A DNA stretch of 64,000 nucleotides from Mitosporidium daphniae. Lineage: Eukaryota; Microsporidia. The notes under the pieces were generated by a model that was not told the DNA's origin, searched no databases, and was given only the letters and a program-made list of their open reading frames with translations. The DNA lies in the NCBI RefSeq assembly GCF_000760515.2, contig NW_013546289.1, forward strand, positions 33,905 through 97,904. Reading direction: 5' to 3'. Each line of letters begins with the position of its first letter. Positions within the stretch are counted from its first letter, which is position 1. This document shows, piece after piece, positions 1 to 64,000 of the stretch. The position numbers were made by a program, and so were the translations under genes.

Positions 1-3000
1 TTGCACGGCCAAAGTCGACGATTTCGAAAGGTTCTTTTTCCCGTCCACGGCAGAACTCCATTGCTCATCGGCGATATCGATGGCATATTTCGATATGTCC
101 AGAGAATCGATCAATTCCTGCTGCTTTGAGCGAAAGGCAGAGTTGGCAGAAAGTGCAGAAATCCGAAGATCCTCATCTAAGCTTTGAGGCGTGGGATCCC
201 ATGCCGCTTCGTCGGAAAGCGAGCGCTTTGATGTGTTGGGATTCGCTTGGCTTACACCAACATCCGATGTCGTTTGGAGAGACCTGGTAGCCCGATTTTC
301 CTCGTGACCTCTGAAAATATTAAAGAATTTCTTCAGTATCTTTGAAAGCATGGCCAACAGCTGCGAAGAGTTGAGGCCAAGAATATTTTCTAGATCGTCG
401 ATAGACTTCATCTGTCCTCCAATGGAGAGCAGAATTCCGCTTTGCACCGGAGTGAGAGAATCTGACGGCTTTAAAGAAAGCTTACCAAAGAAATAGGCCC
501 TTGCAATGGTTGGGATCAGATCCAATATGACGTGGAAATCGGCGGTGTTGCTAAGATATGCCTCAAGGCGCCTTATGTCGAATTTCGAAAGCAATTCAAT
601 CACATTCGAGTCTTTGGCATCGGCAAATATGTTGTGTGTTTGCTGCTGCTGCTGCTGCATAAGCTCGAGAGCAAGGGCAATTGGCATGTCTCGAAAGGCC
701 ATCGGAAGCAGGTTGTAAAACCTGCAATAAAAGTCGTCAAAAAATAGCTTAAGCCAATCGGAGGGATTTTCGACAACAAAGTTCTTCAACATGATGACGG
801 TGTTTTCACCCGTAAGATCGTTCTTAGTTTGCCTGACATAAACAGGGAGAAACCCAAGGCGTTTCCAAAATTTTGCCAAGCTTTGAGTGAGACCAAATGA
901 GACGCCCACCCAATCCAGCCGCTCTGGAGCCCGCTCGTCCAGCCTGTAAAGCAACGGCGGTAAATTAGCACGAGGGCATAATGACTCCAAGTCCGTCTCT
1001 TCGCTCATATTAGAGTGTGCAGGACTATCCTGCTTTGGGTCTGCAAGTCTTTCATCAGAAAACATTTCGCCTCGATAGTATTGCTCAAGTAGGGTGATTG
1101 CGCGAGTTCCATAGCCCATTTTCTGGAGCTCTGGGTGGGTAGCGATTCGGATAATTCTAGCACCAGAAAGACTGGCAAACTCGGTGTCCTGAAACTGGGT
1201 GGAAATTGTCCAAGGGATCAAATCGCCTCCTCCTCTTTGGCCTCTAGAAATAGATTTCAGGATGCTTTCCCTGGAAAGGGATCCCTCAATACAAACTTGG
1301 AGTACACAAAGAATTTCAGGTATGCAATCTTCGTCAGCTCCAGAGGCTGGACCCAACAACACAAACAAATGGTGGGCAGGTGCATCGCTCATCAACTGCA
1401 GATCGTTTGGTGTGTTTTTGTAGTGCGACGAGACATACAAAAACATCATTTTCTGAAGAAAGGTCTCAGAGGCTTCATGAAAAGAAAATAAAGTGTCTCG
1501 ATTTACATAAAACAGCTGGCAATCTTTAGGATGCGGGCAAGAGGGAGAAGTGCTCTTTTTTACTTCGCCAACAGCATCAAAGCAAAGGAGTTTGTTGAGC
1601 CACTCTTCGATAAGGTCTTTTCTGGCATACCGGATCGGTGCTTCAAGCTTTATCTCTTTTAAGAAGCGTCCAGAGGATCCCCCCTGCTGTTCTCGCAACT
1701 GCTGAATGAGTTTCAGAGATAACGAGCGACCGGTGCCTTCATAACCATGGATTGTAGATGATAGCAATACCAAATACGGGCCAAGAAGCGATTTGACCAA
1801 AGGCAATGGGATGGCCGCTGCCTCGTCGATAACAACAAGCTCTGCTTGGCCCAGTACTCGAAAATCTTCAGGAGCTATGTACTGGATGGTTTGGCGATGC
1901 GTCTTGAAAATATTGACGCGAACCGTAATGCCCGAAAGCTCCTCAGAAGTGGCTTGTATGGCATCATAGTGGGTATGCTCATTATAGCCCAATGCTTCGA
2001 GGCCCTTGAACAGAAAGGAAAATAAAGTCCCCAAATTGGAAGGCGAAGGAGAAGTCACAAAAATGTTGGAGAAACCTTGTGACACGGCAACTGCCATTGC
2101 AAGTCCAAGCGCGGCAGATTTTCCTCTACCTCGAGAGGCCGTTAAAGAGAGCGTAAATCGAAGGGACTTTGCAGATATGGCTTCGGCGATTGAAATCAAT
2201 GCGCGTGTTTGGTCGACAGTCTTGCAAAGATTGCCTATAGTACGAACCACGCCGTCAACCTCAGGTAGCTTGTCCAACATATCTTTGATCCGGGAATTTT
2301 CCTGCTCTTGCAACGTAGAAGGATCCTTTTCAACCCCATCTTCGGTTGAAGAAAGCATGTTTCTGCTAAAGCTCGTAATCGGCAACACATTCAAGGAATC
2401 GTCGATAAACAAGCAGCTATCGCATCGAGAAAGGGAAAGAAGAAATCTTTCGTTGAACCTCCCGACGATATCTTGATCTTTAGTGCCTTCTGTTCTGTAT
2501 CTGGAGTGTACGTCCATCGTCATAGTGTAAAGCTGGCGCAGTGAATTGATGTTATTCAAAAGCAAGACTATCATGCCACCGCCTCGAACGGTCTCGATAG
2601 TTCGGGCCAGTAAGTTTGGAGTGAGCGCCTCAAAATCCTATAAGGAAAGGATTTACGAACACAATACCTGAAGCACACACATGCCGAATGTATTTCCGAG
2701 GATCTTTTCGCTCTCCTTATAATAGCAGTAGCGGATGTCGGTGGTCGACAAAAACCTGTCAAATAAATTATCTTCATTGGCAACGTCGTTTAAAGAAATT
2801 CCCTTTTTTTTCTTGTCCTCAAGCATTCTCATGCGCTTCTTTTTGTTTGAGGAAAACCCAAGCTCCTTTTTGTAGCACCATAAAACAGACGGACGCGCAC
2901 AAACTTGTGCCTTTGAGAGCATGTAATGAAGGTGGATAATTTGATCCCTTCCATGGTCTCCTATCATTACAAAAAGAGACCGATGGTGATTGGACACATT

Positions 3001-3048
3001 GAGCTCGATGAGCGTTTTAATGCGAGGGTCGATTTTCTTGCGGGCCAT
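1..3048 (-). CDS. KRE33: RNA cytidine acetyltransferase Kre33/NAT10 (3' end beyond window)
   Basis: This ATP-dependent acetyltransferase makes N4-acetylcytidine in 18S rRNA and tRNA and is needed for small-subunit assembly in the nucleolus. Exons are complement 3048-2668 and 2637-1, joined over a 30-nt intron (2638-2667) that holds an in-frame stop. 1006 residues are visible against about 1025-1056 in the family, so only a short C-terminus is missing. The N-terminus carries the family block ending GMCVLQ-DFEAL. A helicase-type P-loop (SRGRGKSAALG) lies near residue 298, a DEAAAIPLP Walker B follows, and the GNAT acetyl-CoA motif (HPELQKMGYGTRA) is near residue 630. A CTG run at about 641-658 encodes six glutamines. 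A TTAGGGTT motif lies about 28 bp upstream of the ATG. Identification is secure. Confidence 0.95.
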
Positions 3049-3210
3049 TAAAAAAAATAAAATTTATAAATTTCATTAGGGTTGCTCCATATGCACGCGG
3101 CAATGCAAGAAAGGTTTATCTGCATGTGTGTTGATTTGCTGATGCAATGGCACATGTTTATCTGCACTTTATCAAGAACGTCATACTGATGGCCGAAATA
3201 CTTCTTTCCA

Positions 3211-3432
3211 ATGTGTTCATGCTGTTGTGAAAGCTGCTACTGCGTTTTGAATGGCATTCTCGCCATTTTCATTCCGCCGCTAACCGTATTGATCGATCGA
3301 GGCTGTACTAGCGACTTGCTGCTTAACATTCTTTTAACGCTGCTTGGCTGGATCCCCGGTACCATCCATGCCTGGTTTCTACTTTGCGAAAGCAGGGAAT
3401 ACCGAAGAGCCATGCACGAGTGTCCAAGATGA
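3211..3432 (+). CDS. PMP3: Pmp3/UPF0057 family proteolipid, copy 1
   Basis: A 73-residue membrane protein of the Pmp3 (plasma membrane proteolipid 3, stress-induced hydrophobic peptide) family, which modulates membrane potential and cation tolerance. It has a Cys-rich start (MCSCCCESC), then two transmembrane helices around the family block RGC..DLL.NI.LTLLGWIPG.IHA. It lies divergently 162 bp from the Kre33 start. Its TGA is followed by an AATAAA-type signal and only 27 bp later by a small membrane ORF. A second, more divergent copy begins 331 bp downstream, so this is a tandem duplication. No intron. Confidence 0.9.
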   Translation: MCSCCCESCYCVLNGILAIFIPPLTVLIDRGCTSDLLLNILLTLLGWIPGTIHAWFLLCESREYRRAMHECPR

Positions 3433-3459
3433 CCCAATAAAGTTTAATTTTAAACAAAA

Positions 3460-3964: not shown

Positions 3965-3994
3965 GAAATTTAATAAACAATAAAAGCGAGCACG

Positions 3995-5314: not shown

Positions 5315-5360
5315 AAAGAAATAAATTTACTGGTTAGTACTGATCGTTGGTGCTAGGATT

Positions 5361-6513
5361 TCAATCGTTAATTGCATCTTCGCGATTGATGCCAGTGTCA
5401 TCGTCGTTGGGGGTATCGAAGAGATAATTTGCCGCCAGGGATTCGTCCTTGTCGCAGGCAAAAAATGCTTCTATTGCTCTTTGGCGAGGGAATCCCAAAT
5501 CAACCAGTCGGTCTATTGCCTCCTTTTCTTGTGAAGATACTTGAATGTATTGGGTATGTGGAATGGCAGTTGCGCTTTCAATAGGCATGCCAGAGCTCTC
5601 GAGCACTGCATTTTGGCCCAATATTTGATCCGGAACATCGATGTCTTCATTTATTTCTTCAGACACTTCCTCATCAAATACTTCTTGCTCGGAATCATTA
5701 TTGTCTGTGGCACCTTGTCCCTCCTCTTCATCGTCTTCTTCCAGAAGGGCCAGAAATTCGGTCTGGTTTTCATTGATTAGCTATGGTAAGGATTATCATG
5801 GGATACTTGAAGAAGCCGTGGATTTACGCTGCCGATTTGCTGAAGAAGCGGCTGCAATAAGTGAGGTTGTCGGTTCAGCAAAGCCCTTAACTGCTGGAAC
5901 TGGGGATCGGTTTTAAGGAACGATAACGATTGCAGGCCACCGTTTCCGGCAGAGAGCCCATATGTGTCGTTATCGGATGGCTCTGGAATGTTCCCTGAAA
6001 AATGTGTCAAAGAGCTAGCTTACCTGAGAATAAATATTCGGCCGCCCTATCTGGATCGTTAAATGCTGCCTTCATGGCCTTTACGACGATATCCCTATCA
6101 AAGCCGCCCATTTCCATTAATGTAAGGATTTCTATCTCATGTTCCGATGTATTTTCTGTATCGGCAGCTCCATTGGCGGGAGGCGCTTCTTTAGCAACTT
6201 CCGGCAATTTCTTTGTTTCGCTTTGGATAGCGGATACTGGCGGTACTGGAGATGTTGCCGAAACTTTCTTCTTAATCATCATCACCAGAAAGTCTTTGTC
6301 CTTGACATTGCAGCTAGATATGGTCGAAGAGTCACCGAGAACTTTGCCTACAAATAAAAAGCCAGAATTACCTTGGAAAATTATTATTTGCGAAGCAAAA
6401 CCAAACCCTTCCTGAGCTTCGATGGTCTGCTTTACAGTCTGGATGGAGGCCCCATCGTCAACCTCGATGGAAAAGGTCTTTTGTTGAAGGGTTTTTATGG
6501 TAAGTTTAATCAT
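5361..6513 (-). CDS. RAD23: Rad23-type ubiquitin receptor (UBL-UBA-XPCB-UBA)
   Basis: Exons: complement 6513-6372, 6347-6024, 5994-5807, 5780-5361, giving 357 residues. Introns are 24, 29 and 26 nt. Order: UBL domain (1-78), linker, UBA1 (LMEMGGFDRDIVVKAMKAAFN) near 130-165, STI1/XPC-binding region (DPQFQQLRALLNRQPHLL), acidic linker, and C-terminal UBA2 (DRLVDLGFPRQRAIEAFFACDKDESLAANYLF). It shuttles ubiquitinated proteins to the proteasome and binds Rad4/XPC in nucleotide excision repair. The 24-nt intron (6348-6371) is in frame and free of stops. Removing it restores the UBL strand IIFQGKVLGD, which argues that it is real. Confidence 0.93.
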
Positions 6514-6543: not shown

Positions 6544-7569
6544 TTAATTAACACAATCCTCGTCATCGCCCCTCCCTTGGTGGCGGTCGAACTCATCGAG
6601 TTCAGATTCGATTTCCTAGTATAAAAGAAGCACGCATACTCTGGGCTCCCGTGGCTCCTGATGTTCGGAATACTGGATTGCATTGTCAATGTGGGATAAG
6701 ATGTCGCCAATGGAATCCTCGTCTCGGATATTGAACGGCAAAAACTGCACCATATTGAATTCCTCGATCTAAGGGAACGCGTTAATAAATGGCCGCATTA
6801 CCAGGCCAACAATAGCCTCATTCAGTTTCCTAAACTTTGGGTTCATCCCAAGATGCTCGGAACAAGATTTTTCATCGGTTCTGAGCCAATCCAAAAGTAG
6901 GCTTGGGTCTGAATTAAAAAACCTAACAATAAACCACATCGAGCAAACCGTGATATTTGCTCTGATTCAAGAGTGGCGTCATCCACAAGGTCCAGCTTTG
7001 TAATGACGTTGATGTGCGGAATTTCAAGCTGCACCATGGCGCTCATCGCACTTAGCACTCCAGAAAAGAACTTTGACACGTCTTGTAGAAACACAGATTC
7101 GAGCAAATATACACAACACACTTGATATCCCATGCGCTGGAACACAGAAATGATGTTTTTGAAAATCGAAAAATGAGTGTAAAGCTCCAACTGTCCGGGA
7201 CAGTCAACCAGCAGAAACTCGTTGTCATATTGGCCTAAATCGTCCTCCAGCCAATCGATATTTTCCAACAGATATCTACAAATATGCGGGAAATCGGTAC
7301 TCCATGGAATAAATGAGACCTCCATTTGGGCCCAGTGCTAACTCCTCCATAACTTCGTCTACGGTGATGAGGTCTTTGATGTCCTTTGAAACCGGGGCGG
7401 GGAAGTGGTCCGCCGCGGGATCCAAATTGAGTAGATGGATTGCCCGCTTCGTACACGATCCATATGTGACCAGATGATTACAAAATGTGCTCTACACGCA
7501 TAAACGGCCACGCTCCGATACCTTTCCAACGCCGGCGGGGCCAACAACAAAAACGGCAAAGTTGACCAT
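6544..7569 (-). CDS. GPN3: GPN-loop GTPase 3
   Basis: Exons: complement 7569-7522, 7491-7301, 7275-6935, 6908-6802, 6768-6640, 6615-6544, giving 295 residues (human GPN3 284). Introns are 30, 25, 26, 33 and 24 nt. The P-loop GPAGVGKS is split by the first intron right after its Lys. The GPN motif lies in ALGPNGGLIYSMEY, followed by DCPGQLELYTH (G3) and TKLDLV (G4). GPN3 pairs with GPN1 for assembly and nuclear import of RNA polymerase II. The 5' edge of the third intron is the least certain (GTTTAT at 6934; an upstream GTGG is the alternative). It shares a 46-bp promoter with the aminopeptidase gene. Confidence 0.92.
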
Positions 7570-7615: not shown

Positions 7616-9691
7616 ATGCAATTTTTACGATCAATGCAGCTCAAAACACCGCTTTCGGCCACTGCCCGATTGGAGGCGCTCCGGGCGCAAATGAAGCTTC
7701 ATTCAATACACGCATACTATGTGCCGGGCGAAGATGCACATCAGGTAGATTTTTTGCAAGCCTATTTTGCAGAGTGAATATATATCTGCCTGCGATTCCA
7801 GAAGGGCATATATTTCCGGGTTTACCGGCTCGGCAGGAGCCGCGATCATCACCATGAAGGAGGCCGCGCTTTGGACAGATGGCAGATACTTTCTGCAGGC
7901 GGAGCAACAGCTGGATCCCAAGGCCTGGATATTAATGAAGAGCGGGCTGCCCGGCACTCCCCAAAAGGAAGAATGGATTATGGAGAAATTAAAGGCTCCA
8001 AACTCGACGCTTGGATTTGACCCAACCCTAGTCCCCTTTGATTTGATCCAAAAATGGAAGGGCTACTGGAGCGCTCAAAATGCACCCATAGAAATATGTC
8101 CGATTGACCAAAACCTGGTCGATCTGGCGTGGAGCTGTAGGCCCGCTCGTCCTTGCAATGCAGTTTCCGAGCTTGCCCTTTCATTTTGCGGAAAATCATT
8201 TGAGGACAAGCTCAAAGACCTTCGCTCGAAAATCGAGGCCGAAAAATGTGCCGGCCTGCTTGTGTCGTCTCTGGATGAAATAGCATGGATTTTGAACTGG
8301 AGAGGCTCCGATATCGATTTCAACCCGGTCTTTTATTCATATTTGTGGATTGCAAAAGACTGTGTTTACCTGTATATCGATGCTAGGGTTAGCTTTAGTC
8401 CTACAACTATTCCAACTAGAATGGAGCAATCAACTGTCTTGCCAAAAACCTAACGCCGCCCGTTGTCATCAGAGACTACAATGCGCTTTTTTCCGATCTC
8501 AAGTGCTGGAAGGAGCTCTCAAATACGTTTGACCGCGTTTTGATGGCCAAAGGCGTGTCTTCGGTAGATCTTGTCGAATCTGCAGGCGGCGAGGTAAGAT
8601 ATTTTGTATTTAGGGGTAGGAAAAAGTGAAGCTTCTGCCCTCAATCGTTTCTCCCTTGAAGGCAGTGAAAACTAGAGTTGAGATTGACGGATTTCGCAAG
8701 GCACACGTACAAGACGGAGTTGCATTGGTATTTACAGTTTGGCTTAGCCGTAGGTGAGATTCTTTTGTTGGCTTGAATCTGCTCTCACATCAAACCAGGC
8801 TGTAAGTGAATCCACAGCGGCAAACAAACTCAAGGAATTCAGAAGTCAAGGGAAAAACTATGTCGGCCTCAGCTTTGACACCATCTCGGCTTCTGGCCCC
8901 AATGCCGCCATCATCCATTACAAGCCTTCCGCAGAGCTCTCTAGATCGCTTTCGCTTGATGAAATTTATCTGTGTGATTCTGGCGCGCAATATTTGTATG
9001 TGCCCTTTGCTGGCTTAGTTTAGGAACGGGACAACGGACGTTACTCGGACGCTGCATTTTGGAACGCCTTCTTTGGAAGAGAAGATGGATTTCACGCGGG
9101 TTTTGAAGGGCAACCTTGCGCTTGGAAGCATTGTGTTCCCCGAAAAGACCTCCGGCTTTCATCTCGATGTTCTGGCAAGACAGTTTTTATGGGAAAGCGG
9201 CAAGGATTATAGGCATGGCACTGGCCATGGCGTCGGCCATTATCTTAATGTGCACGAAGGTCCGCATGGCATTGGATTTCGCGAAGAATATCTCAAAAAT
9301 ACGCTTGTTGACGGCATGGTGGTCACCAATGGTATTGCTGCATTGTTGCTGTTTTCATTAGAGCCTGGATTTTACAAAGACAGTGCCTTCGGTATCAGAA
9401 TCGAGGACATTATGATTGTGCGAAGCAAGACTGATTTTCCGGAACCCGCTTTTGGGGGCGTTGCCTTTTACGAATTTGAAAAGGTTACAATGGTATTTTT
9501 GACCCTTTGTTAACCAACCCTAGTGTCCGTATCAGAAAAAACTCGTGCAAATTTCAATGCTTACACCGAAGGAAATTAACCTAATCGACCAGTATCATAG
9601 TCAAGTTTATGTTACTTTGGCACCGCTTTTGAAGGAGCTTGATGCCAAAGCATTAGATTGGCTAAAGAGAGAAACCAGCCCCATCTGCTAA
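7616..9691 (+). CDS. XPNPEP1: Xaa-Pro aminopeptidase 1 (aminopeptidase P, M24B)
   Basis: Exons: 7616-7744, 7773-8387, 8420-8593, 8620-8727, 8754-8995, 9024-9331, 9362-9492, 9524-9691, giving 624 residues (human cytosolic enzyme 623). Seven introns of 26-32 nt interrupt it. It releases the N-terminal residue before proline, using two metal ions. Visible blocks: [27 protein letters not shown] at the start of the creatinase N-domain, DSGAQYLNGTTDVTRT (two Asp ligands), HGTGHGVGHYLNVHEGPHGIG (His), NEPGFY and FGIRIED (Glu ligands). The alternative ATG at 7634 is possible. All metal ligands are present, so it should be active. Confidence 0.95.
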
Positions 9692-11172: not shown

Positions 11173-12471
11173 TTAGTAAGAATGGGCAGATGCATCGTTC
11201 TGGTGGGAAATCCGTAGGAACGTGATGGCAGCCAGTAGCTCTGATCGGCATAAGGCATCAACAGTGTCTTTTTCTTGCAACGGCAAGGCACTTATAGCAT
11301 GCGAGAGAATATCAACTCCGTCTTGCTTTGCATCCTACCAAACATCAAAAATAGGACATTGTCAACCTGAATTGAGAGAACAGATCCCCGTTTGTCAAAC
11401 GTCACAAAAAAGTTCCTATCTCCAAGGATGGCGTCATTGCGCAGATGGATGCAAAGACGATACGGGTACTCGTGTTCCATAAAACAAGACGCCCCAAATG
11501 CCTCCTGAATAATCCTTGTCATTCCGTCGTACCTAAGGATAAGATTCAAAGCCCACATATGGTATAGCTCCTCTACAGTGGCATCTCGTTGGATCACATG
11601 GGCCTTTTTGGTGTTTACACTCTCGTCCATCCGATCGCACTCTGCTGCAAGTTCTTTATACAAAAGATCCTCTCGATCGAGACGCAGTTTCGCCTCTTGG
11701 ATCAGCTTGCTCACATCGTGGATCGAGGTTTTGAGATCGGACATTTGCAATTTCTATACTGAGTACGCTTTGAGGAACCTTTTTTTCCAAAGCGGCCTCT
11801 CCCTCTTCAATGGTCATGGTGGAAGTCAAATTCTAGCCGCAAGAAGACTGTTCTCTTACCTTTGTGGAGAGAATCTTTTCAATACGCTCTGCCAAAGATG
11901 CAGCTTGCTGTTCGAGCTCCAATATTTCCTCCGAAAGCAGTCTATTGCCCTTTACGCAAAGGGACGCCGATTTTTGTTCTAAAATAAGGACTTCAATTAC
12001 TGTTGAGGATCAGGTCGCACTGGTCCGCAATGGAGCCTTTGAGCTTCTCCAATTCATCCTTGAGCTTTTTTAGCGCAGCCTTAGACTCATCTATGCAATC
12101 ATCGTATATTCTTTACCTTTGGCCACAAGAATGTGCTTGTCAACGGATTCTCCACAACATCCATCTTCTCCCATCTCTTCGTATAGTGTCGTCAGAAATA
12201 GGAGCTTCGATTGGAGTTCGATGGCTGTAAATTTGAGTCGTGAAAATAGTTCCTAATCAAATAAGCACCGCCACACTTGCCTTTGATTGCCGGAAGGACA
12301 GATCCTCTCCACCTATGGACTGGAGCAGCGCATGCTTTGGCGCAAACATATCCTCATCAGAGGAGAGCGTAAAAAATTCTGAAAGAAAAAGTCCATCCAC
12401 AGATGGAATGGCTACGTTCGGTTTTCTGTCACATAAAAACAAGCAATGCCGTACTGCTCACTTGTCGACAT
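11173..12471 (-). CDS. Coiled-coil protein, unrecognised (possibly kinetochore-type)
   Basis: Exons: complement 12471-12441, 12411-12281, 12252-12117, 12090-12001, 11978-11860, 11832-11779, 11753-11367, 11334-11173, giving 369 residues in one frame. The seven introns are 29, 28, 26, 22, 27, 25 and 32 nt. The second (12253-12280) fits only as a GC-AG intron with consensus AAG|GCAAGT; GT alternatives in phase are poorer. The first intron boundary is uncertain: GTGAGC at 12462 is an alternative. Residues about 100-250 are heptad-rich. After them comes a compact region (WALNLILRYDGM, then YRLCIHLRN and FFVTFDKRGSVLSI) resembling the RWD-like C-termini of kinetochore proteins. I cannot assign a family. 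The start lies 101 bp from the divergent PIS1 gene, with TTAGGGTT between. Confidence 0.65.
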
Positions 12472-33726: not shown

Positions 33727-35068
<1,342 letters not shown>

Positions 35069-42285: not shown

Positions 42286-42382
42286 GGCATCCACCTTAGA
42301 CGAGCCAACCATTGATTGGCCGAGAGCCTTAACACAGTGATCAATTTTGAGCATAAATTTTTTTGCTTATTGGTACTAGATA

Positions 42383-50185: not shown

Positions 50186-50196
50186 AAATTTAACTT

Positions 50197-50412: not shown

Positions 50413-51507
50413 ATGGGAAATTGTATCGGACAACATTCTGAAGAGTATATCCGAAATAGGGAGATTGAACAGTCCTTGAAAAAAGATAAACGGGTGCAAG
50501 ATGACGCCGTAAAACTTTTGTTATTGGGAGCAGGAGAGAGTGGAAAGACAACCATTTTGAAGCAGATGAGAATGATCCACTCGCATGGGTTTACCTCCGA
50601 AGAACGGAATGATGCCAGGACACTTGTCTATTCAAATGTGATTGAGTCGATGCAGATCATCCTCACAGCAATGGAACCTTCAAATTTGGATATTCCATTG
50701 GAAAATGAAAAAAACGATTCAATGGCTTCTCTCGTTAAGAAGGCAATTCCACCGGTATCTGGCGCACCATTGCCAAGTGCCTTGGGCCAAGCTCTCAAAA
50801 TCCTTTCCAAGGATGCTGGAGTTAAAAAATGTATGGCTAGGTCTTCCTCATTTCAATTATTGGACTCTGCCCCCTAGTAAGAGGATCGATCAATTTTAAC
50901 TTTTAGTTTCTTTTCAGAATTGGGGCGAATTTCATCTCCCGATTATATTCCAACTGACCAAGACATTCTTAGGACCAGGCAAAAGTCCACCGGAGTTACT
51001 GAATTCAACTTTACAATTGGGGACCTGACATACAAAATGCTTGACGTTGGAGGCCAGCGTTCCGAAAGAAAAAAGTGGATCCACTGCTTTGACAACGTAA
51101 CTGCAATTGTGTTTCTTGTTGCAATTTCAGAATATGATCAGATGCTGATGGAAGACGAATCGGTCAATAGGATGCAGGAGGCTCTGTCCCTTTTTGATTC
51201 AATCTGCAATTCTCGATGGTTTCTGAATACTTCGATAATCCTCTTTCTTAACAAGATTGATTTGTTTCGTGAAAAAATCCAGAAGGTCCCATTGGAAGCT
51301 ACTTTCCCTATGTATACTGGAGGCCCTGACTTTGATGCAGGATGCAAATTTATGGCAGACATGTTTCTTAGGCTCAACAAGACAGGGCGAAAAACCATCT
51401 ATCCGCATTTAACATGTGCTACGGACACCACCCAAATCAAGTTTGTTATGAACGCTGTAAATAAGATCATCATTGACAAGCTGCTGCAAGAGGCCGATTT
51501 GATATAA
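50413..51507 (+). CDS. GPA1: Heterotrimeric G-protein alpha subunit (G-alpha-i class)
   Basis: Exons: 50413-50876 and 50907-51507, joined over a 30-nt intron with ttaac branch site, giving 354 residues, the canonical length. The N-terminal MGNCIGQ has the myristoylation glycine and a palmitoylation cysteine. GAGESGKT is at 39-46, followed by ISSPDYIPTDQDILRTRQKSTGV (switch I), DVGGQRSERKKW (switch II), NKIDLF and TCATDT. The C-terminus is LLQEADLI, without the cysteine that pertussis toxin would modify. It implies GPCR-type signalling. Confidence 0.96.
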
Positions 51508-56992: not shown

Positions 56993-57771
56993 ATGCTTCA
57001 AGGCTCCCCAAAGGATAGCAAAAGGGTCGATCTTATCCAACGGCAGCTCTTCAGGAAAAAGCTTGTGGCTGTTGGAGACGGGGCCTGTGGAAAAACCTCC
57101 TTGTTGATTTCTTACTGCAGAGGGGAATTTCCGGAGGAGTACATCCCCACTGTGTTTGAAAACTATGTCACGGAAATTTCTTTAGACGGTGGCAGGGTCA
57201 TTGTTGACATGGCGTTATGGGATACTGCAGGTCAAGAAGATTATGACCGTCTGCGTCCACTTTCGTATCCAGACTCGGACATTGTTCTGCTTTGTTTTTC
57301 GATTGATGCGCCAGACTCGCTACGCAGCATCATTGAAAAGGTATGAAGACAATAATGCTGATCGCTTAGTGGCATCCGGAGGTTTCCCATTTTTGCGATG
57401 GTGCTCCAGTAATTCTGGTGGGATGCAAATCCGATTTGAGGGATGATCCATCGGTGATCGGCCGTCTGGCGCGGCTGAACCAACGGCCCATTTCATATGA
57501 AGAGGCCTCTGACGCTGCGTACAGAATCAATGCCTACAGATACGTTGAAACCTCGGCAAAGGTCAAAGATGGCCTTTCCGATCTATTTGCCACAGCAGCA
57601 AGGGCCTCCATAGCAAAAGAACAAAGCTACAAACCGGAGGAAAGGAAAAGCAGGTTTTTCAAAAAAAGGTTCTTTTTTTTTGGGGAGAAAAAAAGCCTCG
57701 TACCCACACTACTTTCCCCGGCACAGCGAAGGGCGCCAGCCGCCAAAAAACACGAATGCTCCATGATGTAG
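56993..57771 (+). CDS. RHO1: Rho-family small GTPase with extended C-terminal region
   Basis: Exons: 56993-57340 and 57370-57771, joined over a 29-nt intron, giving 249 residues (Rho proteins about 190-210). GDGACGKT is at 28-35, switch [10 protein letters not shown], switch [22 protein letters not shown], then [10 protein letters not shown] and ETSAKV. The Rho insert helix is present. About 50 extra residues before the CaaX box (CSMM) are basic and Phe-rich ([15 protein letters not shown]), likely a membrane-binding element. It should control actin or cell-wall synthesis. The number 1 in the symbol is only by resemblance. Confidence 0.92.
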
Positions 57772-57823: not shown

Positions 57824-58858
57824 ATGGTGGTGGTCCATCAGGCTCAATTGCGGCATTCAATTGGAGGAACCAGAACGGTAATACCGGGCCCCCATTCGTT
57901 TCCAACATCATCCAAATATTCTGCCCTACAGAACTCATACTCTGCGCTAGAATCGCTTTATCTGACACTTTTGGTCAGATGTGAATCTGCCGAGTACAAT
58001 TGCCGTCTTTTGCAGTTTGGTAATTGATGGCTATTTATTTTTCATAGAACTTAATACCATAAAATCGCAATCGCTTGCTGCCATACAAAATACAAACGTT
58101 GTTCCTGATTCATTTGGCGATCAAGATTCTGAGAATGTTCTCCGCAATTCCAATAATGTATTGGATAGCAAAGACGCTCAATTGAAATCCGAATTTTCCG
58201 GAAATATAATTGATTTTTCCAAAGCTTCCAACAATAACGACGATTACAGTATTCATGAAAGCCCAGAATCAGAAGAGCCCAAGCGCGACATACTCCAAGA
58301 AAAATCACAAGATACAGAGGAGGGGCCTCCAGAATCCTTTTTTGTAAATATGGAAATTATAAAAGACGATAAAAAGCTTGGAGAACCGCTACATGAATAC
58401 GATAGAGTGCCGCTAGAGTCTTTCGAGGAACAGGATGGAGAACACAAAACTAAGAATGATGATCTTTCTATGTTGCAGGAGAAGATATCGTCTTTGGAGT
58501 TTACGCTCAAATCGCAAACGGAAAAACTTCAAGCACTAGTAAAAGAAAAGGATAAGGGTGCTTGCATAGTGTAATAACTTTTAGAATCCATGGATTTAGC
58601 GTACATCTTAATTGATAGAGACGTAGAAATAGAAGACTTGAAAGATAAACTGCAAGAATATCACGATTTTGACAAAGCTTTTCGGTTTGTTTCTTTCTGC
58701 TTCTTATTTTTTATAGGGAGGGGATTCGTGCAACTGAATCTTACATTTCATGGCTCGAGAGCGGTACATCTTTTCAACATTTAATTTTTACATTAGAACT
58801 AGACAGAGCCTCCAATGGGTGTCTTTCCCAATCCATATCTGAGATCTCTCCTGCATAG
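57824..58858 (+). CDS. Acidic coiled-coil protein, unrecognised
   Basis: Exons: 57824-58019, 58048-58557, 58585-58684, 58717-58858, giving 315 residues in a continuous frame. Introns are 28, 27 and 32 nt; the second donor (GTGCTT) is weak. The N-terminus is polar with a short Leu-rich helix (ALESLYLTLLVRCESAE). The middle is acidic and Asn/Ser-rich. Residues about 200-280 form heptads (LQEKISSLEFTLKSQTEKLQALVKEKD, then VEIEDLKDKLQEYHDFD). No domain was recognised; its role could be scaffolding or tethering. Confidence 0.7.
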
Positions 58859-58993: not shown

Positions 58994-60659
58994 TTAATAG
59001 GAACGTCCAAAAAGTGTATAGGAAACGGCAGGATGGCCACAAGCAACGCACTTAGCGCCTGGAGCCATGCTCGGCTGCTCAAATGGAATACAAAGGCTTT
59101 TAGCACCCATTGCAGGGGCCTTTTCATCCGTGCCTGCACGACAGGTCCGCTCCTTGATGTCTTTTTCGCAGGCGGGACGCTCGCACCATGGAATCATGAC
59201 AAATTTTTTGGCATCCAAAGCAGGTAATACCAGATCCCAACTCTGGTCAATTACCTCCAAATGCTCTTCATGTCGAGCACGTGCGGCGGCAAGCATGTCG
59301 TCGTGAATTTTTTCCAAAAGCACAGGGATCGACTCGGACAACGTTGCAATGCTGTATTGCTTTTTTTGGTCGTCGTGTCTGGTCACTACACGGACCTCAT
59401 TCTTTTGCAAGTCTTTGGGTCCAAGTTCAAATCTAATCGGAACTCCCTTGACTTCCCAGTGATTAAACTTCCATCCAGGCGTATAGTTATCCCTTAGATC
59501 GGTGTTTACACGAATGCCGATAGCCTGAAGGGTGGTTGATATTTGGGAAATCTTTTCCTCAATGGCAGCCACAATTGAAGGCTCTAGCTTCGAAGTGATT
59601 CCACATGGAACGATGACAACTTGGACAGCAGCAACCTTTGGAGGCAACACGAGACCCTTATCGTCACCATGTGTCATCACCATAACACCAATGGAGCGAG
59701 TGGTGATGCCCCATGAGTTTTGCCAGACAAGAGATTTTTCGCCCCGTTCGCCTTCGACTTCGATCTTAAACATCTTTGCAAAATTTTGTCCAAGGCAATG
59801 AGAGGTGGCGCCCTGGATGCCCCTTCCAGATTCTGGAATAAAAGCTTCAACAGTTGTGGTGTAAAGGCCGCCGGGGAACTTTTCACTTTCACTTTTACGC
59901 CCTTTTATGACGGGGACAGCAAGGACATCCTCATACACACGTCGATACAGCTCAAGGATTTGGAGAACTTCATGATCTGCTTCCTTTTTTGTATAGAACA
60001 CCGTGTGTCCCTCTTGCCACAGGAACTCTCTTGTGCGAAGAAAAGGCTGGGGATGCTTAAATTCCCACCGAATCACGTTGCACCATTGATTGATTTTCAA
60101 TGGAAGTTCGCGATGGGACTTGACCCACTTGGCAAAGGTTGGGTACATGATTGTCTCCGACGTTGGGCGGATGGCAATCGGCTCCTGCAGCTCCGATTGC
60201 CCGGATCGTGTGACCCAGGCAACTTCAGGCGAGAACCCTTCAACATGATCCTTTTCCTTTTCCAGCGCGCCTTGGGTGACTAGCATTGGAAAATATGCAT
60301 CTTGAACGCCAATTTTTTCAATTTCCTTTCCAAAGAAATCTAAACTTTGGGCAATTGATAGCTTGAACCTTGAATGCGCTTCCAAATGCAGAAGCTCCAC
60401 GGTCTGAGGATATAGCAGCCAGAAATATCGTAGTAGTCCATCATTTCGGCTTTTAATAGGACCTTGAAATAAGACGCACAAGACTTACCTGAGTATACCA
60501 TGCAGAAAAGTCATCAGCCTTCTTGACATCAATTCCAAGGTTAGAGGCTGTCGTTGGTTGATGGGGATTTGGATTAGGGTTAGGAGAACTAGGTTTCTTG
60601 GATTTCTTTTCATTGAGATCAAGCTTTGAAATATCGATGGGTTTTGTGGTTGCGGACAT
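58994..60659 (-). CDS. PRS1: Prolyl-tRNA synthetase (eukaryotic/archaeal type, free-standing)
   Basis: Exons: complement 60659-60489, 60462-60369, 60339-58994, giving 536 residues. Introns are 26 and 29 nt. It is the class II enzyme charging tRNA-Pro. It matches the ProRS half of EPRS almost end to end: [53 protein letters not shown], motif 2 with WEFKHPQPFLRTREFLWQEGH, motif 3 with GVMVMTHGDDKGLVLPPKVAAVQVVIVPCGIT, and the C-terminal YTLFGRSY. It is not fused to GluRS. The N-terminal leader has an Asn-Pro repeat encoded by ccctaa-like DNA. Confidence 0.96.
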
Positions 60660-60857: not shown

Positions 60858-62636
60858 CTAATTTTTTATTAGGGAATGGGTGGCAGGCGTGCTGATCATC
60901 TTTTCATTAATAATTAAATGCACTATCAAGAATAAAAAGTTGTTTTCAACCAACAAAGAGAAAATAAAATCACCCAAAGATTCATTTAGCGATTCTTCAC
61001 TAATCACCTTGCTCTTCGGGATCTTATCAGATAGCTCTATCATCCCTTTTAGGATATTGTAAACCTTGGCAAAGGTTGCATTTCCCAGCTCTTTACCCAG
61101 ATAATCCTTGACAATTTCAAGCTTCAAAAATAGGGAGGAGCATTTTTTCTGTTGATCAATGATAACCGATATCTCCTCAGAGGACGGCGTGTCCTCGAAA
61201 GAATAATTGGGGCCTTGAATCCAAGAGCAGAGAATGGAAGATCCAAGGGTCCCGAATGAGCCCAGTGGAAACAACCGCCCATTTAAAATGTATTCATTGG
61301 ACGAGATTTTGTAGAACGACAGGAAGCTATGGTCCAAGACCCTTCCGTTGCAATTTTTAGACGCATCCGAAAACGGCAGTTTATTTTCTGCCTGCTGGAG
61401 TCTTGAATCGTCCCCAAAAGACAAGTTGTTTTCACACAATTGGCGTTTATCGTGGCTCCATTCAATATGCTGCAATATGTCTTCAAATGTATCTCTGTCC
61501 GACCATTTGTAGTAAGTAAATATGGTTTCTCGGCTTATGTCCCCAAATACATATTGGCAGATCACATCAAAGGCCTTAGCACGATCATCAAATCTATATA
61601 AATATAACGCAACGACGAACCCACATTTCCAACAGCGATTTAAACTTGCGTGTCAGCAGCGAAATATTGATTTCCGCATCCTTTAAAGGCAACAGGTTGC
61701 TAGTGGTGAGTTGTGGGGGCTTTTCGGGCACCTTTTTTGTTGGGACATTGTACTTGGACATGATTGATAGCAAAAGAAGGTCTTTGGCAGAGGGCCGCAT
61801 GTTAGGGTCCTTTTGAAGCAGGCTCGAAATGAGAGATGAAAGCTCTTTTGAAAAATGCCTACAAGTGAGTTATTGGGGCACCGCGTCGCGCCGTACTTTG
61901 GAATCGGCAAAAACTCGGCCTTGATGATTTTAAGAATTAGCCCTCTTATGTGCCGAGAGTCAAAAGCATGCCTGAGGGTGCACATTTCATAGATGACACA
62001 CCCCAACGACCAAATGTCTGACTTGTAATCATAGGGCTTGGATTCACATATTTCCGGACTCAGGTAATATGGGGTTCCAATTGCTGTGTGGGCCAATTCT
62101 ATTGTTCCAGTAAGTGTGCGGGAGATACCAAAGTCTCCCAATTTCAACACCACATTGGGATATGCCGATTTTGTACGCACATCAGGCAGCGAAGACAAAA
62201 AGATGTTTCTCGATTTTATATCTCGATGCAAAACCTTGAGATCGTGCAGGTACGCCAATGCCGAAATAAGTTGGAAAGAGAACCGTAATATTTGGTCCTC
62301 CTCTAAAGCATCATTGGGAGGCCGCGATGCTTTGAGCTTTTTCAACAGCTGGTACAGATCGCCCTCGTTTGCATATTCGGTAACCACATACAAAAACCCG
62401 CTCTCCTCGAAGGAACCAAAGTATTTGATAATATTTGGATGCGACAACCTTGACAAGATTTCAACCTCCTCGCGCAAAAAAAGCGGATCCTTCACTTCAA
62501 GCTCCTCCGGGTTCAAAGGAATTTCTTTCAGGACAACAAGATTTGAGGACGAACCCTTGGTGTCTCTGGCAAGTATTGCCTTGCCCGAGGTTCCATTTCC
62601 AATCTCTTTTATGAGCTTAAACCTGTTTTTGTTCAT
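60858..62636 (-). CDS. NEK-family Ser/Thr protein kinase with C-terminal extension
   Basis: Exons: complement 62636-61897, 61858-61625, 61593-60858, giving 569 residues. Introns are 38 nt (the start could be 15 nt later) and 31 nt. The kinase domain occupies 1-285: GNGTSGKAIL, VVLKEI (catalytic Lys), HRDIKSRNIFL, LGDFGIS, GTPYYLSPEI, SDIWSLGCVIYEM, KDPNMRPSA. The order and the SPEI and LGC(V/I) forms resemble NIMA-related kinases, which act in mitosis and cilia/centrosome control. The 280-residue tail is Asn/Ser-rich with no known domain. All catalytic residues are present. Confidence 0.9.
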
Positions 62637-62790
62637 CGTCAGTTGTTGAGAATAACTTTATTCTTATAGCAGATGTCACTCAAAGTTGACATGCCATCAA
62701 AATGGGGCAACCCCATTTTGCTTGACATTAATTATTAAAAATTGGGCAGCCCACTCTAGGAAATACAAAAAGTTGGCACTTAATTTTTAA

Positions 62791-63427
62791 ATGGCCAGAG
62801 ATTTTTCACTTCCCATCGCGTCGACGGGCGATCCAGTGAAAAAGGAAAAATGCCAAAAATATCTACTGGAGCTGTTTGTAAGCTCTCCCATAATTCTCTA
62901 CATGAAGGATGCTTTAAAGCAGGCCGGATGCCCTCTATTTGTCAACGACATACAATGTGTACCCTGTTCAACGGATCTACCAATTAGTGGCTTTTATAGG
63001 CCTGGAAAGGGAGTGTTCCTTTGTGAAGAAACAATATATTCGCCCACTCATTTGCAAGAAACTCTGACGCACGAATTATTGCACGCATTTGATTATTGTA
63101 CCAAAGACATAGATCTCTCGAACAACTGTATTCAGAATATATGTACCGAGGTAAGAAGTTCCAGCAGTCGGCTTATTTGAAGATTAGAGCATCAAATTTG
63201 AGCGGAGAATGTAGATTTGCAAATGAATTCCGTCGCGGGTTTTTTGGAATAAAGGGCCATCATCAAGTGGGATCTTTTGCTTATTTTAGGAATGCATCAA
63301 ACGGCGAGCATTGAAATCCGCATCCATGTGCGACGGATGCGAGGGGCAAGACATCGAGGCATTGTTTAAAAAAGCCTTTCCAGTGTGCTTCCAAGACAAG
63401 TCGCCCTTCATTGAAATTCCCTATTGA
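62791..63427 (+). CDS. ATP23: Mitochondrial metalloprotease Atp23
   Basis: Exons: 62791-63150, 63183-63266, 63290-63427, giving 193 residues. Introns are 32 and 23 nt. The HExxH zinc site is intact (LTHELLHAFDYC). Downstream blocks fit Atp23: ICTEIRASNLSGECRF and HHQECIKRRALKSASM, with conserved Cys residues of the intermembrane-space fold. Atp23 processes and helps assemble Atp6, which is normally encoded in mitochondrial DNA. This agrees with COX5A and uS14m elsewhere in the window. It is divergent to the NEK-like kinase at 154 bp. Confidence 0.92.
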
Positions 63428-63506
63428 TGCTGAGCTGGGCCTGTTATAAATTAAAATTTCCTTTCCCAATACGAACGGTGTAAATTACACTTAATTTTGT
63501 GTAGCA

Positions 63507-64000
63507 ATGGAAGAGTACTCCTTTCCATTTGAGTCCTTGAATGGGGTCTCTTTTATGGACCAGGATCATTTTCTTCTGGAGTGCCCGTTTTCAGATGCCT
63601 CCAAAATCAACGAGTACCGTGGCTGTGATTATTTACTTAGATGTTGCATCATTGGAAAGGGAAATGAAAATGCTGTACTTGTGTCGCCCTCAGCCTCGTA
63701 TTCAATTAAGCAGGTTTTGATTACCAGCACCTGCTTGATGGCCAATTCAAAGAGCAAAGAGATTGAAAATATCTTTGATTGCTACTTTGAATGCAGGGAA
63801 GAAAGCACGGTAAATTTTGACAATATACCTGAAATAATGAAATCCTCCATCTACCACAGGCAGCAGCTTCCCGCAGGCCACGAGAAAATCGTAACTATTT
63901 CTTCAAATTACTTATTTTTAGACACGAAACGATTTAAAACTTCTCCTTCAATGTACCGATAGGGCATTGGAAGAGGTTATGGCTCGTTTTAATATCGTTG
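63507..64000 (+). CDS. DCC1: Sister-chromatid cohesion protein Dcc1-like (truncated by window edge)
   Basis: Exons: 63507-63890 and 63922 onward, over a 31-nt intron; about 154 residues are visible. The segment FLLECPFSDASKINEYRGCDYLLRCCIIGKGNENAVLVSPSASYSIKQVLITSTCLM fits the Dcc1 pattern (LLE...G..L.I.G...D.AVL.T...TY.LR....SN). TRNDLKLLLQCTDRALEEVMARF fits the helix after it. In the Ctf18-Dcc1-Ctf8 clamp loader, Dcc1 links to polymerase epsilon. The assignment is moderate because the C-terminal winged helices lie outside the window. Confidence 0.6.

What the first reader, a model, noticed from the sequence alone, without database searches (positions are those of the whole stretch)
1..64000. 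Genome-wide mini-introns: about 85 introns, nearly all 22-38 nt
Frame continuity plus protein similarity locates introns in about 25 genes. Examples: 23 nt in MSH2 (48550-48572) and ATP23 (63267-63289), 22 nt in the coiled-coil gene (11979-12000), 24 nt in RAD23, DHS and clathrin. Only one clearly long intron was found (86 nt, RPL11). Donors are mostly GTA(A/T)xx or GTTTxx and acceptors mostly TAG. A branch-like (C)TAAC is visible in only a minority. This is near the lower physical limit for spliceosomal introns and far below ordinary fungal introns of about 50-70 nt.
Basis: partly seen in the sequence, partly recalled or inferred. Interest (0 to 1): 0.75.

Follow-up and report, generated by a model that had tools for sequence, protein, structure and literature searches.

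The report
Genome-wide miniature introns in Mitosporidium
The tiny parasite behind this sequence, almost certainly the water-flea parasite Mitosporidium daphniae, interrupts most of its genes with introns only about 28 letters long, which matters because it joins miniature introns with a high intron number at the base of a group otherwise known for having lost nearly all introns.

Summary
Confirmed. The window is a contig of Mitosporidium daphniae or a very close relative (98% identical protein). With a flat length prior (12-250 nt), my gene finder puts 302 of 360 introns at 20-40 nt in 308 kb, against 14 of 66, 14 of 54 and 17 of 81 in synonymous-codon shuffles. The window has 83 model introns in 36 genes, 77 of them 22-38 nt. 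In five genes, 28 of 35 junctions sit in cleanly aligned stretches of homologues. U1, U2, U4, U5 and U6 snRNAs each have one match. Density is about 1.76 introns per kb of coding sequence; the published mean for 15 Microsporidia is 0.01. The length is no record (Stentor 15-16, mikrocytids 16-17, Encephalitozoon 22-76 nt). Unusual are density and miniature length together, and that no full-length MSH2 or clathrin of this organism appeared in protein searches. No RNA was available, and the founding genome paper was not readable, so priority is open.

The parts
2638..2667 (-). mini-intron 30 nt, Kre33/NAT10-like gene
   Evidence: posterior 1.0; gene name by recall
5781..5806 (-). mini-intron 26 nt, RAD23
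   Evidence: posterior 1.0; spliced protein has ubiquitin, UBA and XPC-binding domains
5995..6023 (-). mini-intron 29 nt, RAD23
   Evidence: posterior 1.0
6348..6371 (-). mini-intron 24 nt, RAD23 (length divisible by 3)
   Evidence: posterior 0.69 only; ubiquitin profile 1-71 of 72 matched when spliced, best stretch 1-46 in the longest open frame
6616..6639 (-). mini-intron 24 nt, GPN3 GTPase
   Evidence: posterior 1.0; junction in aligned stretch to 9t5j_C
6769..6801 (-). mini-intron 33 nt, GPN3
   Evidence: posterior 1.0
6923..6948 (-). mini-intron 26 nt, GPN3
   Evidence: posterior 0.94, 2-residue gap about 5 residues away
7276..7300 (-). mini-intron 25 nt, GPN3
   Evidence: posterior 1.0
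7492..7521 (-). mini-intron 30 nt, GPN3
   Evidence: posterior 1.0
7745..7772 (+). mini-intron 28 nt, Xaa-Pro aminopeptidase
   Evidence: posterior 0.99; junction in ungapped stretch to 3ctz_A
8388..8419 (+). mini-intron 32 nt, Xaa-Pro aminopeptidase
   Evidence: posterior 1.0; junction lies beside 1- and 7-residue insertions of the homologue, so not judged by homology
8594..8619 (+). mini-intron 26 nt, Xaa-Pro aminopeptidase
   Evidence: posterior 1.0
8728..8753 (+). mini-intron 26 nt, Xaa-Pro aminopeptidase
   Evidence: posterior 0.99
8996..9023 (+). mini-intron 28 nt, Xaa-Pro aminopeptidase
   Evidence: posterior 1.0
9332..9361 (+). mini-intron 30 nt, Xaa-Pro aminopeptidase
   Evidence: posterior 0.88
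11754..11778 (-). probable 25-nt intron, coiled-coil gene (the model called a 13-nt version)
   Evidence: frame-equivalent alternative to the 13-nt call; inference
11833..11859 (-). mini-intron 27 nt, coiled-coil gene
   Evidence: posterior 1.0
11979..12000 (-). mini-intron 22 nt, coiled-coil gene
   Evidence: posterior 1.0
12091..12116 (-). mini-intron 26 nt, coiled-coil gene
   Evidence: posterior 1.0
12426..12454 (-). mini-intron 29 nt, coiled-coil gene
   Evidence: posterior 1.0
12670..12694 (+). mini-intron 25 nt
   Evidence: posterior 1.0
14227..14254 (-). mini-intron 28 nt
   Evidence: posterior 1.0
16197..16227 (-). mini-intron 31 nt, septin-like gene
   Evidence: posterior 1.0; gene name by recall
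16482..16514 (-). mini-intron 33 nt, septin-like gene
   Evidence: posterior 1.0
16931..16955 (-). mini-intron 25 nt, septin-like gene
   Evidence: posterior 0.99
17038..17060 (-). mini-intron 23 nt, septin-like gene
   Evidence: posterior 1.0
17229..17256 (-). mini-intron 28 nt, septin-like gene
   Evidence: posterior 1.0
20525..20556 (-). mini-intron 32 nt, ABC transporter
   Evidence: posterior 1.0; ABC domains
23529..23552 (+). mini-intron 24 nt, clathrin heavy chain
   Evidence: posterior 1.0; junction gap-free in 19 homologues
23755..23784 (+). mini-intron 30 nt, clathrin heavy chain
   Evidence: posterior 1.0; junction gap-free
24225..24252 (+). mini-intron 28 nt, clathrin heavy chain
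   Evidence: posterior 1.0; poorly occupied columns within 6 residues
24538..24571 (+). mini-intron 34 nt, clathrin heavy chain
   Evidence: posterior 1.0; junction gap-free
24770..24795 (+). mini-intron 26 nt, clathrin heavy chain
   Evidence: posterior 1.0; junction gap-free
25757..25793 (+). mini-intron 37 nt, clathrin heavy chain
   Evidence: posterior 0.68; junction gap-free
26615..26640 (+). mini-intron 26 nt, clathrin heavy chain
   Evidence: posterior 0.96; one extra residue in homologues within 6 residues
26851..26887 (+). mini-intron 37 nt, clathrin heavy chain
   Evidence: posterior 0.68; one extra residue in homologues within 6 residues
27344..27377 (+). mini-intron 34 nt, clathrin heavy chain
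   Evidence: posterior 1.0; practically gap-free
31188..31216 (-). mini-intron 29 nt, RPL11
31727..31812 (-). 86-nt intron directly after the ATG of RPL11, the one long intron examined and accepted
   Evidence: posterior 0.94 or 0.92; 3 nt into the CDS
32165..32188 (+). mini-intron 24 nt, deoxyhypusine synthase
32852..32877 (+). mini-intron 26 nt, deoxyhypusine synthase (missed by the model)
   Evidence: frame change at this GT..AG segment; match to DHS by recall
33562..33592 (-). mini-intron 31 nt
   Evidence: posterior 0.98
33836..33865 (+). mini-intron 30 nt, proteasome Rpt4
   Evidence: posterior 0.92; junction in ungapped stretch to human Rpt4
33986..34014 (+). mini-intron 29 nt, Rpt4
   Evidence: posterior 1.0
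34474..34499 (+). mini-intron 26 nt, Rpt4
   Evidence: posterior 1.0
34619..34646 (+). mini-intron 28 nt, Rpt4
   Evidence: posterior 0.99
34849..34877 (+). mini-intron 29 nt, Rpt4
   Evidence: posterior 1.0
38137..38163 (+). mini-intron 27 nt, Leo1-like gene
   Evidence: posterior 1.0; gene name by recall
38389..38413 (+). mini-intron 25 nt, Leo1-like gene
   Evidence: posterior 0.95
38857..38890 (+). mini-intron 34 nt, Leo1-like gene
   Evidence: posterior 0.97
39542..39566 (-). mini-intron 25 nt, aminotransferase-like gene
   Evidence: posterior 1.0; gene name by recall
39764..39788 (-). mini-intron 25 nt, aminotransferase-like gene
   Evidence: posterior 1.0
42376..42409 (-). mini-intron 34 nt, amino-acid transporter
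   Evidence: posterior 0.91; Aa_trans domain
44154..44179 (-). mini-intron 26 nt, SF3b4-like gene
   Evidence: posterior 1.0; gene name by recall
44717..44744 (-). mini-intron 28 nt, SF3b4-like gene
   Evidence: posterior 1.0
47484..47519 (+). mini-intron 36 nt, MSH2
   Evidence: posterior 0.99; no indel at junction, occupancy 0.70
47607..47631 (+). mini-intron 25 nt, MSH2
   Evidence: posterior 1.0; no indel at junction in 10 homologues
48120..48145 (+). mini-intron 26 nt, MSH2
   Evidence: posterior 0.99; poorly aligned stretch
48550..48572 (+). mini-intron 23 nt, MSH2
   Evidence: posterior 1.0; gap nearby in homologues
48840..48871 (+). mini-intron 32 nt, MSH2
   Evidence: posterior 1.0; gap nearby in homologues
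49047..49078 (+). mini-intron 32 nt, MSH2
   Evidence: posterior 1.0; no indel at junction
49387..49413 (+). mini-intron 27 nt, MSH2
   Evidence: posterior 1.0; no indel at junction
49532..49564 (+). 33-nt stop-free intron, MSH2 (missed by the model)
   Evidence: 11-residue stretch present in fewer than 15% of 10 homologues, flanked by GT..AG
49707..49735 (+). mini-intron 29 nt, MSH2
   Evidence: posterior 1.0; no indel at junction
49977..50002 (+). mini-intron 26 nt, MSH2
   Evidence: posterior 1.0; no indel at junction
50877..50906 (+). mini-intron 30 nt, G-protein alpha-like gene
   Evidence: posterior 1.0; gene name by recall
57341..57369 (+). mini-intron 29 nt, Rho-type GTPase-like gene
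   Evidence: posterior 1.0; gene name by recall
58020..58047 (+). mini-intron 28 nt
   Evidence: posterior 1.0
58558..58584 (+). mini-intron 27 nt
   Evidence: posterior 0.91
58685..58716 (+). mini-intron 32 nt
   Evidence: posterior 0.99
60340..60368 (-). mini-intron 29 nt, prolyl-tRNA synthetase-like gene
   Evidence: posterior 0.99; gene name by recall
60463..60488 (-). mini-intron 26 nt, prolyl-tRNA synthetase-like gene
   Evidence: posterior 1.0
61594..61624 (-). mini-intron 31 nt, NEK-like kinase
   Evidence: posterior 1.0; gene name by recall
61859..61896 (-). mini-intron 38 nt, NEK-like kinase
   Evidence: posterior 0.97
63151..63182 (+). mini-intron 32 nt, ATP23 (missed by the model)
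   Evidence: frame change at this GT..AG segment; match to ATP23 by recall
63267..63289 (+). mini-intron 23 nt, ATP23 (missed by the model)
   Evidence: frame change at this GT..AG segment; match to ATP23 by recall
63614..63640 (+). mini-intron 27 nt
   Evidence: posterior 0.94
63891..63921 (+). mini-intron 31 nt
   Evidence: posterior 1.0

Best explanation
These are U2-type (GT-AG) spliceosomal introns shrunk across the genome to about 28 nt (high-confidence range 21-38). Each is little more than its three splicing signals: a GTA-type 5' splice site, a YTNAY branch site whose A lies about 20 nt downstream and about 7 nt before the intron end, and a TAG 3' splice site. The branch-to-end distance is nearly fixed, and the 5' splice site-to-branch distance takes up the length variation. 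A conventional U1/U2/U4/U5/U6 spliceosome most likely removes them by pairing across the intron (intron definition). Shown here: existence, lengths, signals, snRNA genes, and joined reading frames that match homologues. Inferred: that they are actually spliced, intron definition, and that the minimum length is set by spacing between 5' splice site and branch site.
For: Flat-prior gene finding: 302 of 360 calls at 20-40 nt versus 14 of 66, 14 of 54 and 17 of 81 in shuffles; 31 of 43 on held-out C70. High-confidence set of 327: mean 28.2, sd 3.4, range 21-38; TAG 282 of 327, GTA 267 of 327, core GC 0.359 versus CDS 0.453. Branch motif log-likelihood 108.6 versus at most 16.8 in 10 shuffles, which were run with fewer seeds and iterations; 275 of 327 introns assigned, A at intron position 20 (median) with 7 nt after it, intron length correlating 0.87 with 5' splice site-to-A and 0.27 with A-to-end. 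Homology: 28 of 35 junctions in five genes lie in cleanly aligned stretches: Rpt4 5 of 5, Xaa-Pro aminopeptidase 5 of 6, GPN3 5 of 5, clathrin 6 of 9, MSH2 7 of 10. Pfam: GPN3 domain 243 bits spliced versus 106 in the longest frame, Rpt4 AAA 154 versus 59. snRNAs U1 83.6, U2 137.2, U4 97.0, U5 89.8, U6 90.8 bits, each above its Rfam cut-off, which no control genome reached. Prp18 E 6.9e-51.
Against: No RNA data. SF1-HH gave no candidate, which by the tool's own statement does not show absence; the BBP-type KH match (46 bits) is weak evidence because that family also rang in 10 of 14 control genomes, once over the cut-off. Seven of 35 junctions could not be judged cleanly, and one MSH2 call counted as clean (47719-47770, 52 nt, posterior 0.32) is doubtful. 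The model makes identifiable errors: two 13-nt calls and a 240-nt call fusing two genes.
Confidence: 0.95

Rival explanations
1. The apparent introns are assembly or sequencing indels, or decaying genes, that break frames and only look like introns.
For: Frames change over short distances; the assembly may hold duplicated stretches (Prp18 at three places with identical scores).
Against: Removed segments share GTA, YTNAY and TAG signals and a sharp length peak that shuffles lack. The five genes checked give fuller domains once joined.
Confidence: 0.01
2. The introns are real, but a sizeable part is not removed efficiently, with nonsense-mediated decay clearing retained transcripts as in Paramecium. 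This is compatible with the best explanation.
For: After recall correction, introns divisible by three are under-represented: 66 with stop observed versus 87.7 expected (P 0.009), 10 stop-free versus 16.6 (P 0.06). UPF2 (42.8 bits) and UPF3 (39.2 bits) matches exist.
Against: The deficit is mild and not specific to stop-free introns. The UPF1 zinc-binding domain was not found in an intron-blind search. No RNA data.
Confidence: 0.3
3. The organism is not Mitosporidium daphniae but an undescribed close relative.
For: 98% rather than 100% identity of the one matched protein. The genome held is 4.66 Mb in 147 contigs versus the published 5.64 Mb in 612 scaffolds.
Against: GC of the window (0.405-0.481 per 4 kb) against 43%, and the longest contig met (104,519 bp) against 115,468 bp, fit a filtered M. 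daphniae assembly.
Confidence: 0.15

Closest known systems
Encephalitozoon cuniculi introns (PMC3629993, passages seen)
   Same: GT-AG introns at the short end (22-76 nt). The RPL11 intron directly after the ATG recalls the 5'-end introns of ribosomal-protein genes reported for microsporidians and yeasts (PMC10245619, passages seen).
   Different: E. [quoted passage not shown] here an extrapolated 6,300 with loose motifs (donor +3 to +6 carries 1.27 bits) and a tighter length range.
Paramecium introns of about 25 nt (PMC5014332, passages seen)
   Same: Introns confined to a narrow ultra-short range.
   Different: Unrelated lineage; strong selection on introns divisible by three and for stops in them there, only a mild and unspecific deficit here.
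Mikrocytid introns, 16-17 nt (PMC10245619, passages seen)
   Same: Reduced intracellular parasite with miniature introns.
   Different: Nearly fixed length and strongly conserved sequence there, 224 introns in M. mackini; here 21-38 nt, degenerate, and far more.
Stentor introns, 15-16 nt (PMC9505925, passages seen)
   Same: All snRNAs present; branch A near the 3' end (10th of 15 nt).
   Different: Fixed 15-16 nt there; here the 5' splice site-to-branch distance varies (5th to 95th percentile 16-27).

Membership tests
U2-type spliceosomal introns | GT..AG ends | tested here: inconclusive
   GT and AG were required by the gene finder, so not independent; the further GTA and TAG preferences were learned
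U2-type spliceosomal introns | branch-site motif near the 3' end | tested here: met
   YTNAY with 5-11 nt after the A in 180 of 327 versus 78 expected; EM motif
U2-type spliceosomal introns | genome encodes U1, U2, U4, U5 and U6 snRNAs | tested here: met
   one match each above the gathering score
U2-type spliceosomal introns | removal from mRNA | not testable with these tools
   no RNA data; protein continuity is indirect
Microsporidian (Encephalitozoon-type) intron set | short introns | tested here: met
   mean 28.2 nt versus 22-76 nt
Microsporidian (Encephalitozoon-type) intron set | very few introns per genome | tested here: not met
   415 introns in 235.5 kb CDS, 128 of 171 predicted genes; published mean 0.01 per kb for 15 species
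Paramecium-type surveillance-shaped introns | stop-free introns divisible by three specifically depleted | tested here: inconclusive
   10 versus 16.6 expected, P 0.06; stop-bearing ones reduced too, 66 versus 87.7
Fixed-length mini-introns (Stentor, mikrocytids) | one or two lengths only | tested here: not met
   sd 3.4 nt, 21-38 nt

The most novel reading that the evidence does not exclude
Mitosporidium preserves the intermediate step of microsporidian genome reduction: introns were miniaturised genome-wide to about 28 nt while still numerous, and mass intron loss came afterwards, so the few short introns of Encephalitozoon are survivors of an already miniaturised set. In addition, these introns have defeated public annotation: intron-rich genes such as MSH2 and clathrin heavy chain are missing as full-length proteins, so some reported gene absences at the base of Microsporidia are annotation artefacts.
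Probability: 0.45. Interest if true: 0.65.

Novelty: new variant of a known kind. Interest (0 to 1): 0.5.

Why it matters
A published reconstruction places massive intron loss in the ancestor of Microsporidia after the split from Cryptomycota such as Rozella (PMC8476143, passages seen); its main text does not name Mitosporidium. A lineage at the base of the group with about 1.76 introns per kb, mostly 20-40 nt, separates two processes usually confounded, shrinking and loss, and makes their order testable. It also offers a large natural data set on how small a spliceosomal intron can be when sequence signals are weak. Practically, intron-blind gene calling on this genome often yields fragments: the longest open frame is 446 of 1,655 aa for clathrin and 152 of 837 for MSH2, though in three of the ten genes checked it is over 80% of the spliced length or longer. 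Gene-absence claims for M. daphniae, for example no CLK kinase (PMC12795684, passage seen), therefore deserve re-checking on the DNA; I did not test that claim genome-wide.

Tried and rejected
Record-short introns: the two 13-nt window calls (11754-11766, 32510-32522) were examined and rejected. The first has a frame-equivalent 25-nt alternative; the second lies where the frame that I recognise as DHS reads straight through.

Long introns: 33 of 415 calls with posterior above 0.5 exceed 40 nt and 3 are under 20 nt. I listed the 16 long ones with posterior above 0.9 and checked only two: RPL11, accepted, and the 240-nt call, rejected as a fusion of two genes. Long calls also appear in shuffles, so many of the rest may be errors; some may be real.

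Branch motif: first EM runs converged on the acceptor; excluding the last 4 nt gave the YTNAY motif.

Translation-dependent surveillance: inconclusive. A first calibration (7 stop-free introns divisible by three among 280, recall 0.37) suggested a stronger deficit; the larger one (2,400 trials, 327 introns) weakened it and showed stop-bearing ones reduced as well.

MSH2 against solved structures at E 1e-120 returned nothing because the threshold was too strict; MSH2 was then tested with 10 homologues. SF1-HH and UPF1 zinc-binding searches found nothing and are not evidence of absence. ARAGORN and Rfam at gathering scores found no RNA gene in the window. A regex for LAMMER-type kinase motifs in the 308 kb found none; that is under 7% of the genome.

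Rows dropped before counts: predicted genes with under 240 nt of CDS; for motif statistics, introns with posterior of 0.9 or less or outside 18-40 nt; GC-AG and AT-AC introns are excluded by design. For clathrin 19 of the 120 listed homologues were used, for MSH2 10 of 45. The Pfam comparison used 5 of the 10 genes. In the parts list, model calls under posterior 0.9 are left out unless homology speaks for them.

I opened passages of eleven papers only; several listed ones that mention Mitosporidium were not opened (for example PMC13174016, PMC4589312, PMC12558613). The only statement on Mitosporidium gene structure I saw is that its caleosin gene is intronless (PMC6309107). Three opened papers on Mitosporidium or its relatives have no occurrence of 'intron' in the main text. 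The 2014 M. daphniae genome paper (PNAS, recalled) and the microsporidian intron paper PMC6349667 are not held, so whether short introns were already reported for this species is unknown to me.

Full report
What genome this is. The window is bases 33905-97904 of contig C92 in a 4,662,434-bp, 147-contig assembly. Its 1,440-residue NPC1 frame matches a protein named Mitosporidium daphniae at 98% over its full length; the next hits, 71% and 56%, are unnamed. GC and contig sizes fit the published M. daphniae genome (43% GC, longest scaffold 115,468 bp; table in PMC5701793, passages seen). NCBI places the species in Microsporidia incertae sedis.

Are the introns there? I wrote a semi-Markov gene finder with coding, antisense and intergenic models and introns of any length from 12 to 250 nt, flat in length and at first without splice-site preference beyond GT and AG. 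On 248 kb it converged to 240 introns, 164 of them at 20-40 nt with a sharp peak at 23-34, the other 76 spread thinly from 12 to 240 nt. With a learned length prior it gives 339 introns (posterior above 0.5) in 191.7 kb of coding sequence, and 83 calls in 36 window genes. On contig C70, not used for training, the flat-length version puts 31 of 43 calls at 20-40 nt.

Control. In contigs with predicted introns removed and synonymous codons permuted within genes, the flat-length model finds 14 of 66, 14 of 54 and 17 of 81 calls at 20-40 nt; in the real sequence 302 of 360. With the learned prior, three shuffles give 14, 8 and 13 high-confidence calls and the unshuffled intron-removed sequence 7, against 280 real ones, a false-call rate of about 3-5%. 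In these controls the splice-site parameters are those learned from the real data.

Homologues. Spliced Rpt4 aligns to human Rpt4 over 385 residues with one 2-residue indel, and its five junctions fall in ungapped stretches. For Xaa-Pro aminopeptidase five of six junctions do so; the sixth lies beside 1- and 7-residue insertions of the human protein. GPN3's five lie in aligned stretches, one about five residues from a 2-residue gap. These junction positions I derived by hand coordinates. For clathrin heavy chain, six of nine junctions have full occupancy and practically no inserted residue within six residues in 19 homologues; one sits by poorly occupied columns and two by a single extra residue. 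For MSH2, seven of ten are indel-free in 10 homologues (occupancy 0.7 or more) and three lie in poorly aligned stretches; one of the seven (47719-47770, posterior 0.32) is doubtful on other grounds. That makes 28 of 35 cleanly aligned, and in the other seven homology neither supports nor contradicts. MSH2 also has an 11-residue stretch that homologues lack and that is exactly a 33-nt GT..AG segment without a stop, an intron the model could not see. Splicing raises the GPN3 domain match from 106 to 243 bits and the Rpt4 AAA match from 59 to 154 relative to the longest open frame.

Numbers. Across 308 kb: 171 predicted genes, 128 with introns, 415 introns with posterior above 0.5 in 235.5 kb of coding sequence, or 1.76 per kb; 379 of 415 are 20-40 nt. 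Scaling by length gives roughly 6,300 introns in the assembly (inference). The 327 high-confidence introns average 28.2 nt, sd 3.4, 21-38 nt; phases 0, 1, 2 are 165, 81, 81.

Anatomy. Donor GTA in 267 of 327, otherwise weak (1.27 bits over +3 to +6); acceptor TAG in 282 of 327; core GC 0.359 versus 0.453 in coding sequence. Expectation maximisation finds a degenerate branch motif, [CT]T[AT]A[CT], with log-likelihood 108.6 against at most 16.8 in 10 shuffles (the shuffles were run from 4 seeds and 30 iterations, the real set from 12 and 60). In 275 of 327 introns a site can be assigned: the A is at intron position 20 (median; 5th percentile 16, minimum 11) with 7 nt after it (5th to 95th percentile 5.7-11). 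Intron length correlates 0.87 with the 5' splice site-to-A distance and 0.27 with the A-to-end distance. The positional preference was learned from the same data, so these spacings lean towards the motif; a direct count of YTNAY with 5-11 nt after the A, 180 of 327 versus 78 in shuffles, supports it without that model, though the range was chosen after seeing it.

Machinery. U1, U2, U4, U5 and U6 each have one match above Rfam's cut-off; U1 and U6 searches also rang below the cut-off in 3 and 4 of 14 control genomes. The U1 5' region (ACTTACCT), U2 GTAGTA, U6 ACAGAGA and the U5 loop CGCCTTTTACTAAAG read as canonical (sequences; canonical forms recalled). Prp18 is present. A BBP-type KH exon matches above cut-off, but that family also rang in 10 of 14 controls, one above cut-off, so it is weak. 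Nothing seen points to an exotic spliceosome; most of its proteins were not searched for.

Surveillance. After correcting for recall by up to 2,400 spiked introns, introns divisible by three are under-represented both with an in-frame stop (66 versus 87.7 expected, P 0.009) and without (10 versus 16.6, P 0.06). UPF2 and UPF3 match; the UPF1 zinc-binding domain did not. This hints at, but does not establish, Paramecium-type selection.

Public annotation. In a database of about 5.8 billion proteins the single-exon NPC1 finds its M. daphniae counterpart. Spliced MSH2 (45 hits; highest identity 41%, over a third of the query; only the 7,989 candidates sharing most words were scored) and spliced clathrin (highest identity 36% among the 120 listed of 1,965) list none, although a near-identical protein should top the list. 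The search admits only proteins of 0.55-1.75 times the query length, so fragments would be missed; the longest open frames are 446 of 1,655 and 152 of 837 residues. From two intron-rich genes against one intronless gene, this suggests that intron-rich genes are absent or fragmented in public proteomes of this organism. It could also reflect what the database happens to hold.

Against what is known. Mini-introns as such are known in Encephalitozoon, Paramecium, chlorarachniophyte nucleomorphs, mikrocytids and Stentor. What differs here is an intron-dense genome with miniature, variable-length, weakly marked introns at the base of Microsporidia. A published table gives a mean of 0.01 introns per kb for 15 Microsporidia and 2.53 for Rozella (PMC8476143, passages seen). 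In what I opened after the searches I saw no description of Mitosporidium introns beyond one intronless gene; not every listed paper was opened and the founding genome paper is not held, so this is not a claim of priority.

Noticed in passing
L028, L029, L032, L030, L031 (upstream of U1, U2, U4, U5, U6): All five snRNA genes share TCCCAYAA at -55 to -62 from the start of the Rfam match, with TATAA at -25 to -32 in four of five (TTTAAAT in U4). The motif occurs 19 times on both strands of 308 kb, never within 150 nt upstream in sense orientation of 167 predicted starts (once in antisense), and none of the 19 is followed by TATAA 20-42 nt on; one, inside ATP23, is followed by TTTAAA. It looks like a dedicated snRNA promoter element.
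   Followed up: partly
window 31727-31812: RPL11 carries an 86-nt intron directly after the start codon; 5'-end introns of ribosomal-protein genes are reported for yeasts and microsporidians.
   Followed up: partly
G000 C56:50046, C80:2158, C118:10369: Prp18 is found at three places with identical scores, suggesting duplicated stretches or redundant contigs in the assembly.
   Followed up: no
window 17803-23264: An EamA-type transporter and an ABC transporter lie head to tail on the minus strand; the model fused them through a false 240-nt intron.
   Followed up: partly
P0002 and P0003: Two unnamed relatives carry NPC1 at 71% and 56% identity, but no comparably close MSH2 or clathrin was listed, as expected if their genes are also split by introns.
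   Followed up: no
window 38023-39191 and 14498-15520: Predicted proteins with long acidic D/E repeats (Leo1-like C terminus, name recalled) and histidine-rich repeats.
   Followed up: no
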